Source: Bacillota bacterium (GTDB lineage: Bacteria > Bacillota > Sulfobacillia > JAJYWN01 > JAJZPE01). From it: 64,000 bases of DNA. The DNA lies in assembly GCA_021787335.1 (NCBI GenBank), contig JAJYMC010000041.1, forward strand, positions 1-64,000, in the 5' to 3' direction. Positions 50,111 to 56,587 of the stretch are shown in pieces. The notes below the pieces were generated by a model. It did no database searches. It saw only the letters and a list, made by a program, of their open reading frames with translations, and was not told the origin of the DNA. Position 1 is the first letter of the stretch. Each line of letters starts with the position of its first letter. The translations under genes and the position numbers were made by a program.

Positions 50111-53100
50111 TTAACCCTTCTTCCGACTGTAAAAGGGCGGGCTTGACCGCGCGGGGCGCGGGACAGGGCCGGCGGGGACGCCCCCAGGCGCCGGACGGGA
50201 CGGCGGCGGCAGGTCCTTCGGGTCGAGGTGGGCCACCCGTTCAGCGGTCACGCTGACCCCCTTCCCCCGTCGCTCGACCTTGCCCCAGACGACGAGGGGC
50301 GGGCACGGGTCGCAGAAGATGTACTGGCCGTACTTTTGGTACACGTTTTCGAAGACGGTGACGTCGGCCAGCCCGAACTCGTCCTCGAGGGAGAGGAAGA
50401 CGACCGTCCTCCCGCTCTTGGTCGGCGGCCGATGGGGCCGCACCAGCAGCCCGGCCACCTTGACCCGGCGGCCGCGGGCCATCGTCGCCAGCGAGCGGCT
50501 GGCGGTGAAGCCGTCGGCCTTCAGCCGTTCGCGGAGGAGGCTCATGTAGTGTCGGCTGACCTGGATGCTGAGGATATCATGCTCGAAAGCAACCTTTTCG
50601 AAATCAGTGAAGTCTTCGACCGCCGGCCACTGGGCCACCGAATCCTGAGGCGCCGGCTCGGCCGTCTCCAATAAGCCACCCACGGTCCGCCTGGCCAGGG
50701 CGTCGTCGAGGAGCCAGAGGAGAGCCCGCCGGTTCGGCTCGAGGGCGTTGAAAGCGCCGGCCTTGATGAGGTTCTCGATGATGTCCCGGTCGACGGTGGT
50801 CCGGGCGCAGAAGTCGAAGAGGTCGGCGAAGGGCCGCCCAGCACGGGCCGCGATGATGGAGTCCAATGCCTCGCGGCTCATCCCTTTGAAGGCCTTCAAG
50901 GACACTCGGATGCCCGGCTTGCCCGCGGCCTCCTCGACGGCGAACGCCTCCTGGCTTTTGTTCACATCGGGGGGAAGGATGGCCACCCCGCGCCGCCTGG
51001 CTTCGACGCAGATGGTGTTCGGCGGGTAGTAGCCCATCGGCTGCAGACTGAGGATGCCGGCGAAGAAGTGGGCCGGGTAGTAACGGAGGAGGTAGGCCGT
51101 CTTGTAGGCGGTGCTGGCAAAGGCCGCCGCGTGGGCTTCGCAAAACCCGTAGCTGGCATAGCCGGCGATGTAGCCGAAGACGGTCTCGGCCACCTCCCGC
51201 TCGACCCCTTGAGCCATAGCCTTCTCAATGAAGAGGCGGCCGATCTCCTGCATCTCCTGGCGCGAACGGGCATGGCTCATCACCCGCCGCAGGCGGTCCG
51301 CTTCGCCCGGGGTGAAGCCGGCGACCGCCGTGGCGATCTCGATGACCTGCTCCTGGAAGAGGACCACGCCATAGGTCTTCTCCAGGATGGGCTGCAGCTT
51401 GGGGTGAAGGTAGGTGACCGGCTCGCGGCCACGGCGGCGCTCGACGAAAGGCTCGACCATGTTGCCCTTGATCGGCCCGGGGCGGATGATAGCCAGGCTG
51501 GCCACGATGTCTTCCATATTATCCGCGCCGAGCCGGGCCTGGAGGGCCCGCTGCGCGGGACTCTCGAGCTGGAAGACGCCGATGGTCTTGCCCGTCCGGA
51601 GCAGCCGGTAGACCTCCGGGTCATCGGGGGGCAGTTTCTCGTAATCGAAAGGGGCCGCGCCGGCGCGTCGTCCGCCCGAGATGCCGTTCCCCTGGACCGC
51701 GCCGTTGATCGACCGCACCGCCTCCTCGACCGCCCCCATCGTCCTTAGGCACAGGAGGTCCAGCTTGACCAAGCCGGCGTCCTCGGCGAGGTCCTTGTCC
51801 AGCTGGCAGACGACGATTCCCTTGGCCGCCTCCTGGAGCGCGGTGACCTCGGTCAACGGGCGGGCCGAGATGACCAGCCCGCCGAGGTGGGTGCCCAGGT
51901 GACGCGGGAAACCGGCCACGGCTTTGGCCGCCTCGAAGAGACGCTGGTAACGCCGGGCCGGCAGAAGGCCGCCCTGCTTGAGTTCGGGCAGGCCCTCGAA
52001 GGCCAGTTCGACCTCATCGGCGCCGATCCAGGGCAGCCGCTTGGCCAGCCGGTCGATCTCCTCGGGCGGAAAGTCAAGGGCCTTGCCCAGGTCGCGGATG
52101 GCCGACCGCCCCTGGAAGGTGTTGAAGGTGGCCACCGCCGCCACGCGCTCCGCGCCATAGCGGTCGTAGACGTACCTGGTGACCCGGTCCCGGTGGCGGG
52201 CATCGAAGTCGATGTCGATGTCCGGCTTCTCGGCCCGCTCCAGGCTCATGAAGCGTTCGAAGAGGAGGCCGCGGCGGACCGCGTCGACGTCGGTGATGCC
52301 CAGGCAGTAGGCGACGGCCGAGTCGGCGGCCGAGCCGCGCCCGGCGAAGTGGATGCGTTCCTTGCGCGCGTACTTGGCGACGTCCCAGACGAGGAGGAAG
52401 TAGTCCTCGTAGCCGAGGCGGGTGATGATGTCCAGCTCGTGGTCCAAGCGTTGCCGCACGGCGGCGGTGATGGTCCCGTAACGCCAGCGGGCCCCCTGCT
52501 CGACGACCCGTTTGAGGTAATCGGCGGCCGTCCCAGCCGGGACCTCGAACCGCGGGTAGAAGCGCGCATCAAGGTCCAGGGCTGGTCCACAGCGCTCGGC
52601 GATCTCCTCAGCGGTGCGGATGGCCTCCGGGAACTCCGCGAAGAGGGCGGCCATCGCCGGCGGGGACTTGAGGTCGTTCTCGGCGTTGAGCCGCCGCTCG
52701 GGATGGATGTCGCTGATCTTGGTCAGGGTCCGGACGCAGGTCAGGAGGTCATGGGCGGGAAAGCGGTCCGGGGTGGCGTAGTGGACGTCGTTGGTGGCCA
52801 CCAGCCGCAGGCCGAGGTGGTCGGCCAGTTCCCTGAGGTCGCGGAGGAGCCCAGTGGTTCCGGGCAGCTGTTCGTTCTGGACCTCGATGAAGAACCGGTC
52901 CGGCCCGAGCAGGTCGCGGTAACGACGGGCCACCTCCAGGGCCGTGGCATAGTCACCGCGCAGGACCAGGGAGGGGATCTCACCACGGCGGCATCCGGAA
53001 AGGACGGCCACGTCATCGTTGTGGGCGGCGAGGTCGGCCCAGGCCAGGCGGGGCTTGAGGCGCTCGTTGGTCAGGTGGGCCTGGCTGACCAGCCGGCAGA

Positions 53101-53374
53101 GGTTGGCGTAACCGCGCGGGCCGAGGGCCAGGAGGGTGAGGTGGCCGCCTTCTCGGGTCAGCGGCGAGGCCGCCCAGACCTCGGCCCCATGGATGGGCTT
53201 GATACCGGCCGCCCTGGCCGCTTTGACCAGCGGGATGGCCGAGCTGACGTTGTCGTGGTCGGTCACGGCCAGGGCCGGGGAACCGTCGGCGGCGGCCTTT
53301 CGGACAAGGTCCTCGATCCGGCTGGCGCCGTCAAGGAAAGAGAACTGGCTGTGCACGTGAAGGTGAGAGAACAT
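50111..53374 (-). CDS. dnaE2: DnaE2/ImuC-type error-prone DNA polymerase III alpha subunit
   Basis: 1087 residues. PHP domain with HLHVHSQFSFLDGAS and TDHDNVSS; polymerase core with GRGSAADSAVAYCLGITDVD, FERFMSLERAEKPDIDIDFDARHRDRVTRYVYDRYG (catalytic Asp residues in DIDIDF) and GFPRHLGTHLGGLVIS; C-terminal OB-fold region VKVAGLLVRPHRPPTKSGRTVVFLSLEDEFGLADVTVFE. The short length and operon with a degenerate Y-family gene and DUF6504 fit DnaE2/ImuC rather than the replicative DnaE. It would carry out mutagenic bypass synthesis after DNA damage. Start ATG at 53374; it lies 15 bases after the DUF6504 gene. Confidence 0.9.
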   Translation of the reverse strand: MFSHLHVHSQFSFLDGASRIEDLVRKAAADGSPALAVTDHDNVSSAIPLVKAARAAGIKPIHGAEVWAASPLTREGGHLTLLALGPRGYANLCRLVSQAHLTNERLKPRLAWADLAAHNDDVAVLSGCRRGEIPSLVLRGDYATALEVARRYRDLLGPDRFFIEVQNEQLPGTTGLLRDLRELADHLGLRLVATNDVHYATPDRFPAHDLLTCVRTLTKISDIHPERRLNAENDLKSPPAMAALFAEFPEAIRTAEEIAERCGPALDLDARFYPRFEVPAGTAADYLKRVVEQGARWRYGTITAAVRQRLDHELDIITRLGYEDYFLLVWDVAKYARKERIHFAGRGSAADSAVAYCLGITDVDAVRRGLLFERFMSLERAEKPDIDIDFDARHRDRVTRYVYDRYGAERVAAVATFNTFQGRSAIRDLGKALDFPPEEIDRLAKRLPWIGADEVELAFEGLPELKQGGLLPARRYQRLFEAAKAVAGFPRHLGTHLGGLVISARPLTEVTALQEAAKGIVVCQLDKDLAEDAGLVKLDLLCLRTMGAVEEAVRSINGAVQGNGISGGRRAGAAPFDYEKLPPDDPEVYRLLRTGKTIGVFQLESPAQRALQARLGADNMEDIVASLAIIRPGPIKGNMVEPFVERRRGREPVTYLHPKLQPILEKTYGVVLFQEQVIEIATAVAGFTPGEADRLRRVMSHARSRQEMQEIGRLFIEKAMAQGVEREVAETVFGYIAGYASYGFCEAHAAAFASTAYKTAYLLRYYPAHFFAGILSLQPMGYYPPNTICVEARRRGVAILPPDVNKSQEAFAVEEAAGKPGIRVSLKAFKGMSREALDSIIAARAGRPFADLFDFCARTTVDRDIIENLIKAGAFNALEPNRRALLWLLDDALARRTVGGLLETAEPAPQDSVAQWPAVEDFTDFEKVAFEHDILSIQVSRHYMSLLRERLKADGFTASRSLATMARGRRVKVAGLLVRPHRPPTKSGRTVVFLSLEDEFGLADVTVFENVYQKYGQYIFCDPCPPLVVWGKVERRGKGVSVTAERVAHLDPKDLPPPSRPAPGGVPAGPVPRPARSSPPFYSRKKG

Positions 53375-53389
53375 GGCTGTCCCCGATTT

Positions 53390-53668
53390 TTAGTCGTAGA
53401 CCTTATAGAGTCGCCACTCGCCCGGCGCCTCTGCTTGTCCGCCGGGCGAGTCGTTTTTGCGGACCTCCCGCGACAGCTCGAAAGTCCCGCCGTCGACGGT
53501 GGTCACTCTGAAGACTTCCTTCGGGCCGTCGCCATCCCACCATTCGCCGGCCTCGAACCAGTGGTCGAGGACCTCCTTCACCCGGTGGTGGGCGCGGTAG
53601 CGAAAGGCCCTGGGAGTGAGGTCAGGATTGAGTTCGACGGGCACGGGGCGGTCGATGATCCGGGACAT
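53390..53668 (-). CDS. DUF6504 protein of the mutagenesis operon
   Basis: 92 residues: VPVELNPDLTPRAFRYRAHHRVKEVLDHWFEAGEWWDGDGPKEVFRVTTVDGGTFELSRE, a small beta-rich DUF6504-like protein. Such proteins are encoded beside imuB and dnaE2 genes in several phyla; their role is not known. GGAAAGCAGGGA precedes the ATG. Between it and the Y-family gene lies an IS607-type remnant, so the once-compact operon is now split by about 1.55 kb. Confidence 0.7.
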   Translation of the reverse strand: MSRIIDRPVPVELNPDLTPRAFRYRAHHRVKEVLDHWFEAGEWWDGDGPKEVFRVTTVDGGTFELSREVRKNDSPGGQAEAPGEWRLYKVYD

Positions 53669-53702
53669 TGGTCCCTGCTTTCCGCAACATACCCAAACGT
53701 GT

Positions 53703-54923
53703 TCACGTCGGGCAGAGGTCGCTAGAGTTTACGTTGTTTCCCGCTTCACCCAGCTTGCTTACACCGAAACGTTTCCGCTTTGGCATAGAGGCATTCTGTC
53801 CACAGGCGTCAGTTCCCGTGCGGCCCACGGTACGAAGACCTTCACACAAGATGTTTCGGCTGGCGTTGAGGTCACGGTCTTCGATATGACCACAGTGCAC
53901 ACAGACGTATGTCCGATCCTTGAGGGTCAAGTCTTCCTTGATGCTTCCGCATTTCCGGCAAGCCTTGGAGGACGGGAAGAACCTGTCGACCACGGCCAGG
54001 GTTCCACCGTGTCTCGGCACCTTGTACTGCAATTGCCGCCTGAACTCGCCGAAGCCCACATCGCTGATGGAGCGTGCCAGCTTTTCGTGTCGTAGCATCC
54101 CGGCGATGTTCAAATCTTCGATGGCGACGAAGGCGTAGCGCCTTGCCAGCATGGTTGTAGTCTTGTGCAGCCAGTCGTGGCGAATGTTGGCGATCCGCTC
54201 ATGCAGACGGGCGACACGTTCTGCAGCCTTTCGACGGTTGGCGCTTCCCTTCACCTTTCGGTGCAGGCGGCGGTTCAGCCGCGCCAAGCGCCTCATGGAC
54301 TTCTTCAGGGGCTTGGGGGCTTGGACGTCCTTTCCAGTGGACACCACGACGATTGCCTTCAGGCCAAGATCAATCCCGACTTTCACGTGGCTTTTGTGAA
54401 TGACGGGCTTGTCCTCAACCTGAACCTGAATTGATATGAACCAGTGATTGGCAGTCCGGGACACCGTTGCACCCATGAGTTTCCCGTCAAACCGGAGCGC
54501 TTCGGTCATTGCTACCCGATTCGTGGTAGGCAGACGAACTTGCCTTCGACGCGGAACTTGTCGTTGCTGACGTAGAATCTGTCTGGTGAACGGCCCTTCT
54601 TCTTGAAGCTCGGGAAGCGAACCTTACGGCCCTTGCGCTTGCCGGCTTTTGATGCGGAAGTTACCCATGGCCGAACCCAAGTCCGACAGGGCTGCTTCCG
54701 TGGCGCACTTTGTTACCTCGTACATCCAAGGAAAGTCCGTCTTCTTGGCGGCATTCAGGCGTTTCTTCAAGGCCATCCAGTTCGTCTTCTCGCCAGCTTC
54801 CACTGCCTTCTTCCACTCAGCAAGGCCCTAGTTATAGGCAAAGCGCGCTGTCCCGCAAGCCTTGCGGAAGTACGTCTCCTGCTTTGGAGTTGGGTTCAGC
54901 CTGATCTTATGGGCAAGTAGCAC
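53703..54923 (-). pseudogene. tnpB: tnpB of a decayed IS607-type element
   Basis: The first part is read from GTG at 54923 (AHKIRLNPTPKQETYFRKACGTARFAYN), the usual TnpB start, but an amber codon follows AYN (54832-54830). Later the frame shifts twice: near 54650 (RKVRFPSFKKKGRSPDRFYVSNDKF continues in another frame) and near 54520. The intact C-terminal 268 residues carry the RuvC acidic residues (GIDLGLK, AIEDLNIAGML, CGHIEDRDLNASRN) and the zinc ribbon (CRKCGSIKEDLTLKDRTYVCVHCG). It cannot make a full protein without suppression and frameshifting. It follows the resolvase remnant by three bases, as in IS607 elements. Confidence 0.8.
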
Positions 54924-54926
54924 TGC

Positions 54927-55251
54927 CTATTCACCACCCTTCACCATCGCGGTTATTTCTTGCTTGTGCTTCCGTAGGCCATATAACTGCGACGAGAAGC
55001 AGTGAATGATCGATAAGAGGTCCCGCGTCATTTCCTCTTCGGGTGACAGCGACTCGGCATTCATGACCTTACAATCTTGGTGCCGGTGCTGCGCAGAACT
55101 ACTCGAACCATTCGTAGCCGAATCGGACGAACCGATCCTGGTGGGCGATCACGATTTCGGCCACTTCATTGCGCTCCACCATCTGCATGAGGAGATTAAA
55201 ATGCTTGCACTTCAGTCCACTGCCGATGTCCTCAAACCTAACGCCGATACG
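54927..55251 (-). pseudogene. tnpA-like serine recombinase remnant of an IS607-type element
   Basis: Read on the minus strand the segment gives IGVRFEDIGSGLKCKHFNLLM, VERNEVAEIVIAHQDRFVRFGYEWFE, an in-frame stop, a frameshift, and then MNAESLSPEEEMTRDLLSIIHCFSSQLYGLRKHKQEITAM. This is the middle and C-terminus of the IS607 resolvase (DRFVRFGYE and EEEMTRDLLSIIHCFS are typical). The HTH and catalytic Ser region is missing where it meets the Y-family gene near 55.25 kb, so the left end has been deleted. Confidence 0.8.
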
Positions 55252-56503
55252 CGGCCAGATGCAACACAGAACTTGAGCTTGAGCGGTACGGATCCCAAAG
55301 AGCCAGCATCCGTTCGCGCCGGGGCACCTCGTCGTCCTTGCCGAGCGTGATCACCCGGTCGGAGTACTTCTTCTTCAGGGCCTCGAGGGTGTGGCCGAGC
55401 CGCTCCCTGGCCTCGACCCGCTCGTGGGAGTCGGTGACGGGTTCGAAGAACAGGTCGGGCTGGATGCCGACGGCGGGTTGGACATCGCCGGCCACCACTT
55501 TCAGTGAGGTCACCGGCTCGTTCACCGGCAGCCTGGCGATGAGGTTCTGGAGGGCCGTGCGCAGCGCCCCCGCCGAGGCCTCGGGACGGGCGAAGCCACG
55601 GGCCGCGTGGTAGGCCGTCGGACCGGCCCGCACCTCGAGGAGGAGACGGCGGCAACCCTCGAGGTCCCGGCTCAAGCGGCCCTCCAACCTGGCGGCCATC
55701 CGGCCGAGGGCGACGGCCATGACGCCGGCGTCGGCCGTCCCTTCGTCGAAGGCCATTCGCTCTTCGAGTTCGCGCCGCGGGTAGAGCGGCCGGACCGGGA
55801 CCGGGTCGATGCCCCGGGCCAGGTCGATGAGGAGCCGGCCACCCGACCCGAACCGCCGGTTCAACTGACTCTGGGGGAGTTTGGCCAGTTGCCCGATGGC
55901 GGTGACCCCGAGCGACTCGAGGGCCGACACGGTGGCCCCGTCGAGCCGCCACAACCGGTCCGGCGGCAGCGGGGCGAGATATTCGGCTTCAGCCCCCCGC
56001 AGGACCTCGATGACCTCGGCCCCCGGGAGCCTGGTCACCCGGCAAAGGCGGCCCGGGGCATAGCCGCTCTGAAGGCCGACCACGGCCGCCTTGGCCAGCA
56101 GCTTGGAAGAAGCCACCCCGATCCGGACCCGGTCGGCCAGGTCCGGGACGAGGGCGCTGACAAAGGCGGCCAGGGCCGCCGCCTCGTCGGGCAGACCGGT
56201 CAGGTCGGCGAAGGCCTGGGTCTCGGAGACCGGCTCGACGATGGGTGAGACTCTCGTCACCAGCTCGAGGAAGGCGTCGATGACCGGCCGGGCGGCGGCC
56301 TCGTCGTAACGGACCAACGTCGCCCAGTGGCAGGCCTGCCGGGCATGTCGCTCCCGGATGCCCACGCTGACACCGGCCGACCCGGCTTCGGCCGAATAGT
56401 CGATGACCGCGCCGTCCTTCAAGACGACGCTGGCGCCGGAGGACACAGCGGTCAGCTTACCGCACAGGAGCCCACGAAGCTCGATGAAGGCGACCCGTTT
56501 CAT
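55238..56503 (-). CDS. ImuB-like Y-family protein lacking catalytic acidic residues
   Basis: 421 residues with the Y-family layout: N-terminal palm-like strand VAFIELRGLLC where active polymerases have an Asp-containing strand, IVEPVSETQAFADLTGL where they have the SIDE motif, fingers RIGVASSKLLAKAA, and a little-finger region up to RRERMLALWDP. Both catalytic acidic positions are substituted, so it is probably a non-polymerising adaptor as ImuB is. The last residues (after DPYR) are read into the IS607 remnant. Start ATG at 56503; longer frames upstream overlap the promoter and are rejected. Induced through the LexA box ahead of it. Confidence 0.8.
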   Translation of the reverse strand: MKRVAFIELRGLLCGKLTAVSSGASVVLKDGAVIDYSAEAGSAGVSVGIRERHARQACHWATLVRYDEAAARPVIDAFLELVTRVSPIVEPVSETQAFADLTGLPDEAAALAAFVSALVPDLADRVRIGVASSKLLAKAAVVGLQSGYAPGRLCRVTRLPGAEVIEVLRGAEAEYLAPLPPDRLWRLDGATVSALESLGVTAIGQLAKLPQSQLNRRFGSGGRLLIDLARGIDPVPVRPLYPRRELEERMAFDEGTADAGVMAVALGRMAARLEGRLSRDLEGCRRLLLEVRAGPTAYHAARGFARPEASAGALRTALQNLIARLPVNEPVTSLKVVAGDVQPAVGIQPDLFFEPVTDSHERVEARERLGHTLEALKKKYSDRVITLGKDDEVPRRERMLALWDPYRSSSSSVLHLAAYRR

Positions 56504-56530: not shown

Positions 56531-56548
56531 CCCGAACATCTGTTCGGG
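56531..56548. promoter_or_regulatory. LexA (SOS) box
   Basis: CCCGAACATCTGTTCGGG contains CGAAC-N4-GTTCG, the Gram-positive LexA/DinR consensus, with three extra symmetrical bases on each side. It lies just downstream of the -10 of the Y-family gene promoter, so LexA would block initiation. Confidence 0.85.
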
Positions 56549-56557
56549 TCTAAACAC

Positions 56558-56587
56558 ATTATACCGGTCCACCCCGGGGCCTGTCAA
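56558..56587 (-). promoter_or_regulatory. consensus promoter of the SOS mutagenesis operon
   Basis: On the minus strand TTGACA (56587-56582) and TATAAT (56563-56558) with an 18-base spacer, exact matches to both hexamers. The LexA box overlaps the expected start point about ten bases further on. Confidence 0.85.

What the first reader, a model, noticed from the sequence alone, without database searches (positions are those of the whole stretch)
53669..55260. Decayed IS607-type element splitting the SOS mutagenesis operon
The Y-family gene, DUF6504 and dnaE2 are normally adjacent. Here the last residues of the Y-family protein run into the middle of a serine recombinase remnant, followed by a tnpB with one amber codon and two frameshifts. 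The N-terminal recombinase part is gone, so the insertion is old and has suffered a deletion, yet the operon genes remain intact on both sides.
Basis: seen in the sequence. Interest (0 to 1): 0.55.

Follow-up and report, generated by a model that had tools for sequence, protein, structure and literature searches.

The report
Broken jumping gene inside repair operon
A mobile DNA element of a well-known type jumped between two genes of a DNA-damage mutagenesis operon in one bacterium and then fell apart, trimming the tail of one gene but leaving the conserved parts of the operon readable; this is ordinary genome wear and tear, well documented by two relatives that still have the empty site.

Summary
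On the minus strand an IS607-type remnant (about 53677-55277, 1.6 kb, 55.7% GC against 67.5% for the window) lies between an ImuB-like Y-family gene and DUF6504-dnaE2. A same-genus (G001) and a same-family (G002) genome carry the empty site. The left flank ends at 55278 and tnpA homology starts at codon ~87 of 207, so the left end, the DNA-binding domain and the catalytic serine are gone. The insertion lies in what was the ribosome-binding region of DUF6504 (AAGGAGG in G001), which fits a GG-targeting IS607 transposase. In both relatives the Y-family frame runs 91 nt into DUF6504; the insertion replaced its 34-residue tail with 13 residues and a stop, and the lost tail is still readable inside DUF6504. 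The Y-family core, DUF6504 and dnaE2 remain open, without significant relaxation of selection. "Old" is weakly supported: the insertion is lineage-specific, foreign in composition, and its tnpB is no more diverged than an intact relative's. An SOS box and a consensus promoter precede the operon. Ordinary; low interest.

The parts
55238..56503 (-). Y-family, ImuB-like gene (421 aa); conserved core ends LALWDPYRS at ~55278, last 13 residues and the stop are encoded by the insert
   Evidence: Pfam IMS and IMS_C; alignment with G001/G002; start and lengths
56558..56587 (-). consensus promoter TTGACA-18-TATAAT upstream of the operon
   Evidence: 12 of 12 consensus bases; 1 site found, shuffles mean 0.4
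56533..56546 (.). SOS (LexA-type) box CGAACNNNNGTTCG between promoter and Y-family start
   Evidence: only exact site in 64 kb, 0.09 expected, 8 of 100 shuffles had at least one; also upstream of the Y-family gene in G001 and G002
55272..55283 (-). left deletion junction: tandem CTCAAG CTCAAG where the Y-family flank meets tnpA codon ~87
   Evidence: microhomology is inference
53677..55277 (-). IS607-type remnant as a whole (boundaries uncertain by several bases)
   Evidence: absent from G001 and G002; 55.7% GC for 53677-55278 against 67.5% for the window
54927..55277 (-). tnpA (serine transposase) remnant: C-terminal part only, 1 amber and 3 frameshifts; its own stop at 54927-54929
   Evidence: frameshift-aware alignment to G020 TnpA residues 87-203 of 207, 76 of 114 identical; NF033518
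53703..54923 (-). tnpB pseudogene (probable GTG start 54921-54923): amber 54828-54830, frameshifts ~54640 and ~54515; last 268 codons open (53703-54509)
   Evidence: 231 of 395 identical to G020 TnpB; Pfam PF01385, PF07282
53677..53698 (-). putative right end of the element (GTTTGGGTA...GCGGAAAGC)
   Evidence: resembles, by eye, the right end shared by three TnpB elements in G003; single site in own genome at up to 3 mismatches
53390..53668 (-). DUF6504 gene (92 aa), intact; its +1 frame still carries the lost Y-family tail with the same stop
   Evidence: PF20114
50111..53374 (-). second dnaE, DnaE2-like (1087 aa), intact
   Evidence: Pfam and NCBIfam; higher-scoring dnaE and a third, weaker dnaE/PolC-like gene elsewhere in the genome

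Best explanation
An IS607-family element (tnpA serine transposase plus tnpB) inserted, in the lineage of this genome after it split from its same-genus relative, in the ribosome-binding region of DUF6504, probably at a GG, inside an SOS-controlled imuB-like/DUF6504/dnaE2 operon whose first two genes overlapped by 91 nt. Later a deletion starting at the left flank removed the left end and the first ~86 codons of tnpA, possibly across a CTCAAG microhomology, and stops and frameshifts disabled what was left of tnpA and tnpB. The element cannot move on its own. The Y-family protein now ends 13 residues after its last conserved block. DUF6504 keeps its own start with a purine-rich ribosome-binding sequence at the right junction, and dnaE2 is untouched, so the operon is probably still expressed. 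Shown: the empty sites, the remnant's identity and lesions, the tail swap, the SOS box. Inferred: GG targeting, the microhomology deletion, the order of events, continued expression.
For: Empty site in G001 (flank matches 1 nt apart) and G002 (3 nt apart), the only 2 of the 60 other genomes searched in which both flanks matched side by side at the DNA level (up to 4 first-look candidates scored per genome; junctions printed). tnpA and tnpB aligned to an intact IS607 element in G020. No IS607 TnpA over the family cut-off in the own genome (3 matches: the two pieces of this remnant and one weak one on C24), and no second copy of the insert. The Y-family frame overlaps DUF6504 by 91 nt in both relatives, and the lost tail is still readable in the +1 frame of the window's DUF6504. 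Duplex energy of the DUF6504 leader with the 16S tail is -10.3 in the window against -11.2 and -11.7. Branch-specific synonymous/nonsynonymous counts, window against G001: Y 35/42 v 47/37 (p 0.21), DUF6504 12/8 v 7/8 (p 0.51), dnaE2 114/70 v 110/67 (p 1.0). IS607 inserts at GG without target duplication (PMC6188088, passages).
Against: The left end is gone, so the exact insertion base and the GG at both ends cannot be checked. The right flank differs from G001 and G002 by a few bases, so the right boundary is uncertain. IS607 leaves no target duplication, so precise loss in the relatives would leave no mark; direction rests on parsimony over two relatives. No expression data. The duplex energy ignores spacing, and 5.1% of random 22-mers do as well. 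The branch counts include time before the insertion. The Y-family gene shows somewhat more nonsynonymous change than in G001, not significantly.
Confidence: 0.93

Rival explanations
1. The stops and frameshifts are sequencing or assembly errors and the element's tnpB is intact and active.
For: The genome is a draft in 65 contigs; no reads could be seen. The last 268 codons of tnpB are open.
Against: Seven lesions in 1.54 kb of element, none in the neighbouring Y-family, DUF6504 and dnaE2 frames, about 4.8 kb. The left end and ~86 tnpA codons are missing outright.
Confidence: 0.04
2. The insert is kept because it is useful: the open 268-codon tnpB end keeps ribosomes moving to about 35 nt before DUF6504 and so protects dnaE2 from polarity, or a short TnpB product or guide RNA regulates the operon.
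For: No lesion lies in the last 776 of 1536 nt of the aligned element; chance of this about 0.007 for seven lesions, or 0.03 if the three close ones count as one (the cut was chosen after seeing the data). TnpB acidic residues are present in the open part (by eye).
Against: The first and last parts of tnpB are about equally similar to relatives (mean ratio 0.91, range 0.61-1.08, against 0.80, sd 0.12, in 106 other pairs), so no sign of constraint limited to the last part. No Rfam match in the region. A recent insertion explains an open frame just as well.
Confidence: 0.04
3. The element was ancestral to the genus or family and was lost precisely in G001 and G002.
For: IS607 transposition leaves no target duplication (PMC6188088, passages), so precise loss would leave no mark.
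Against: Needs two independent precise losses; composition of the insert is still foreign; the 91-nt gene overlap is the same in both relatives.
Confidence: 0.03

Closest known systems
IS607-family insertion sequences (tnpA serine transposase + tnpB)
   Same: tnpA C-terminal half and tnpB in the same order as in an intact G020 element; insertion site in relatives holds GG
   Different: this copy has lost its left end and the N-terminal part of tnpA and carries seven lesions; the best relative found is only 58% identical in tnpB (231 of 395)
TnpB elements without a recognised tnpA, such as the three copies in G003
   Same: tnpB with a similar right end
   Different: G003 copies have an open tnpB, and two of the three share a left end; the window copy keeps neither. 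A tnpA leftover in front of their tnpB is only a weak hint (tblastn E 0.30 and 1.0), and NF033518 did not report one there
ImuB-DnaE2 mutasome cassette
   Same: inactive-looking Y-family protein, second dnaE, SOS box upstream
   Different: DUF6504 between them; no ImuA gene between the SOS box and the Y-family gene; elsewhere in the genome not searched

Membership tests
IS607-family insertion sequence | tnpA of the IS607 serine-recombinase family | tested here: met
   remnant matches NF033518, below its cut-off and in two pieces; 76 of 114 residues identical to G020 TnpA, which is over the cut-off
IS607-family insertion sequence | N-terminal DNA-binding domain and catalytic serine in tnpA | tested here: not met
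   lost in this copy: homology starts at residue 87 of 207; the serine's place at ~70 is recalled from the YxRVS motif. So a remnant of the family, not a working member
IS607-family insertion sequence | tnpB downstream of tnpA | tested here: met
IS607-family insertion sequence | insertion at GG without target duplication | tested here: inconclusive
   the relatives' empty site holds GG (AAGGAGG in G001, CAGGGAGG in G002) and no duplication was seen, but the left end is gone
RNA-guided TnpB | three RuvC acidic residues and zinc finger | tested here: met
   present by eye in GIDLGLKA, AIEDLNI, CxxC...CxxC, EDRDLNA of the open C-terminal part (motif positions recalled)
RNA-guided TnpB | complete open reading frame | tested here: not met
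   amber and two frameshifts
RNA-guided TnpB | guide RNA at the right end | tested here: inconclusive
   no Rfam match up to E 1, but Rfam need not cover this element's RNA
ImuB (inactive Y-family protein) | catalytic acidic residues missing | tested here: met
   SETQ in place of SIDE in the alignment to DNA polymerase IV 7yll; the other catalytic position was not aligned there
ImuB (inactive Y-family protein) | clamp-binding motif followed by a RecA-like N-terminal motif | tested here: inconclusive
   QPDLF conserved in three of three, followed by LEALKKKYSDRVITLG in the window; assigned by eye after PMC11791113 (passages)
ImuB-DnaE2 SOS cassette | LexA-type box upstream | tested here: met
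   consensus recalled
ImuB-DnaE2 SOS cassette | imuA in the cassette | tested here: inconclusive
   promoter and SOS box lie directly in front of the Y-family gene, so no imuA precedes it on this transcript; no search for ImuA was run in the window or the genome

The most novel reading that the evidence does not exclude
The decayed insert has been put to use: the open end of tnpB, which stops about 35 nt before DUF6504, carries translation through the insert and prevents polarity on dnaE2, while the clipped Y-family tail uncouples translation of the two genes, so an insertion has rewired expression of an SOS mutagenesis operon.
Probability: 0.04. Interest if true: 0.45.

Novelty: new member of a known kind. 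Interest (0 to 1): 0.16.

Why it matters
It is a clear worked example of an IS607 insertion into a ribosome-binding region between overlapping genes, with two empty-site relatives and the lost gene tail still readable in the neighbouring gene. It changes nothing in the understanding of IS607 or of SOS mutagenesis.

Tried and rejected
Looked for close relatives of the element. Two collection scans with a few exact peptides of the tnpB end confirmed none (genome contigs, viral contigs; such scans reach close relatives only). None of 3,682 matching plasmid records reached 60% identity. In a phylum sample, 6 of 397 other genomes had a match at E <= 1e-60, none above 50% identity. The best relative is G020, same class, 57% over the tnpB end. 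So the element's own ends could not be set from a close copy.

Tested whether the last part of tnpB is under separate constraint: not supported. Tested for relaxed selection on the operon genes: not significant for any of the three. Searched for a known RNA at the right end: none. A library search for DUF6504 gave 0 papers.

The overlapping Y-family tail of G001 and G002 was considered as a functional domain and rejected as unlikely: in the 19 other loci with a Y-family match upstream of DUF6504, the Y-family frame stops before DUF6504 or at most 17 nt inside it. The 30 loci examined were those returned for the best matches among 112 matching genomes of 154 searched; 9 of the 30, the window's own locus among them, showed no Y-family match in the up to 1.5 kb fetched on that side.

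Full report
What is there. The reported stretch lies on the minus strand between a Y-family polymerase-like gene and DUF6504-dnaE2. The Y-family protein matches Pfam IMS and IMS_C, the 92-residue protein matches DUF6504, and the 1087-residue protein is a DnaE-type polymerase. The genome holds a higher-scoring dnaE on another contig (1305 bits against 818 for this copy, TIGR00594) and a third, weakly matching 1507-codon frame that I take for PolC, so this is a second, DnaE2-like copy.

The element. A piece of the C-terminal part of an IS607 transposase (NF033518 positions 93-139, E 2.3e-11, below the model's cut-off) is followed by tnpB. A frameshift-aware alignment to an intact element of a same-class genome (G020) shows tnpA residues 87-203 of 207 with one amber and three frameshifts, and tnpB residues 1-403 of 432 with one amber and two frameshifts (the alignment also lists tnpA's own stop, which lies before the tnpB start). 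Identity is 76 of 114 and 231 of 395. Nothing of the transposase before about residue 87 is present: the Y-family flank ends at 55278 and tnpA sequence begins in the next bases, in a tandem CTCAAG that could reflect a microhomology deletion (inference). The right end resembles, by eye, that shared by three TnpB elements in G003.

Empty sites. Of 61 genomes searched with the region (the own genome and 60 others), the same-genus G001 and the same-family G002 have the two flanks side by side, 1 and 3 nt apart, at 83/83% and 78/74% identity. G001 reads CTCAAGGAGGAGCGCCCAATG at the junction, G002 CTCAGGGAGGAGCGAACCATG; the window has CTCAAG on one side and AGGGACCAATG on the other. IS607 inserts at GG without duplicating the target (PMC6188088, passages; PMC4058570, passages), which fits an insertion into the AAGG-AGG of the DUF6504 ribosome-binding region. 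The exact base cannot be fixed because the left end is lost and the right flank differs slightly from both relatives. G001's contig has the same length (11,109 bases) as a record titled Bacillota bacterium isolate SKS1.bin113, so the host is probably a Bacillota lineage.

Effect on the genes. In G001 and G002 the Y-family frame overlaps DUF6504 by 91 nt. In the window the insertion replaced the last 34 residues with 13 and a stop. The old tail is still readable in the +1 frame of the window's DUF6504, with its stop in the same place. That tail is probably not functional: in the 19 other loci with the Y-family gene upstream, the frame stops soon after a conserved block ending in DPxR (LALWDPYR in the window), before DUF6504 or at most 17 nt inside it. 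The window keeps that block. DUF6504 keeps its start, with a leader-16S duplex energy of -10.3 (G001 -11.2, G002 -11.7; 5.1% of 2000 random 22-mers of the window do as well; spacing was not scored). Branch-specific changes show no significant relaxation in any of the three genes.

Is it an SOS operon? Upstream of the Y-family start (56503) lie a 12-of-12 consensus promoter and the only exact CGAACNNNNGTTCG site in the window, 0.09 expected, at least one in 8 of 100 shuffles. The site is also found in G001 and G002 upstream of the same gene. The Y-family protein has SETQ where an active enzyme has SIDE. It carries a QPDLF and a RecA-N-terminus-like stretch before its end (assigned by eye), in the order described for ImuB (PMC11791113, passages). 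So an ImuB-like reading is well founded. The order Y-DUF6504-dnaE was found in 20 of 30 loci examined, with 21 showing Y upstream and 27 dnaE downstream. Those 30 include the window's own locus, where the fetched stretch ends before the Y-family gene.

Age. The insertion is absent from a same-genus genome, its GC is 55.7% against 67.5% for the window, and third-position GC of the tnpB end is 0.70 against 0.89 for dnaE2. The window's tnpB is as close to 13 other TnpBs as the intact G020 TnpB is: mean identity 0.445 against 0.438, lower in 4 of 13. Its first and last parts are about equally similar to relatives: ratio 0.91 on average, range 0.61-1.08 over 16 comparisons, against 0.80 (sd 0.12) in 106 other pairs. 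Of the 20 loci given to that call, 4 yielded no usable row, and two of the 17 aligned sequences were second copies of others (removed). This argues for a fairly recent loss rather than a long-dead element. All seven lesions fall in the first half of the aligned element, chance about 0.007, or 0.03 with clustered lesions merged, but the cut was chosen after seeing them.

Verdict. It is ordinary, with a clean before-and-after record.

Noticed in passing
L044 (box 2115-2128), L076 (box 2531-2544), L037 (box 2740-2753): TnpB elements with an SOS-type box at their promoter. In two G003 copies CGAACNNNNGTTCG follows a TTGACC...TATAAT pair inside the shared left end, with the spacer differing and the half-sites kept; in G001 (L037) the box overlaps a TTGACA...TACAAT pair upstream of a different tnpB. 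3 of 30 tnpB loci scanned, 105 kb in all, hold the box (promoter pairs and element limits by eye and). Damage-controlled TnpB elements would be worth a look.
   Followed up: partly
50111-56503 and loci L047-L075: DUF6504 sits between the Y-family gene and dnaE in 20 of 30 class loci examined, behind an SOS box in the window, G001 and G002. It may be an unrecognised third part of this mutasome; a library search for DUF6504 gave 0 papers.
   Followed up: partly
L042:644-2026 and L043:685-2061: In G001 and G002 the Y-family frame runs 91 nt into DUF6504 and stops at the same place in both, an unusually long overlap compared with the 19 other loci.
   Followed up: partly
whole genome G000 (e.g. 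G000:C28:94107-94787, G000:C30:24161-24853): The window's genome has 24 matches to the TnpB end at E <= 0.001, while G001 has 2 and G002 has 1, yet no IS607 TnpA over the family cut-off. The TnpB load looks lineage-specific.
   Followed up: no
genome G020: A same-class genome with 20 matches to the IS607 transposase model, 12 of them over the cut-off, a possible reservoir of such elements in the class.
   Followed up: no
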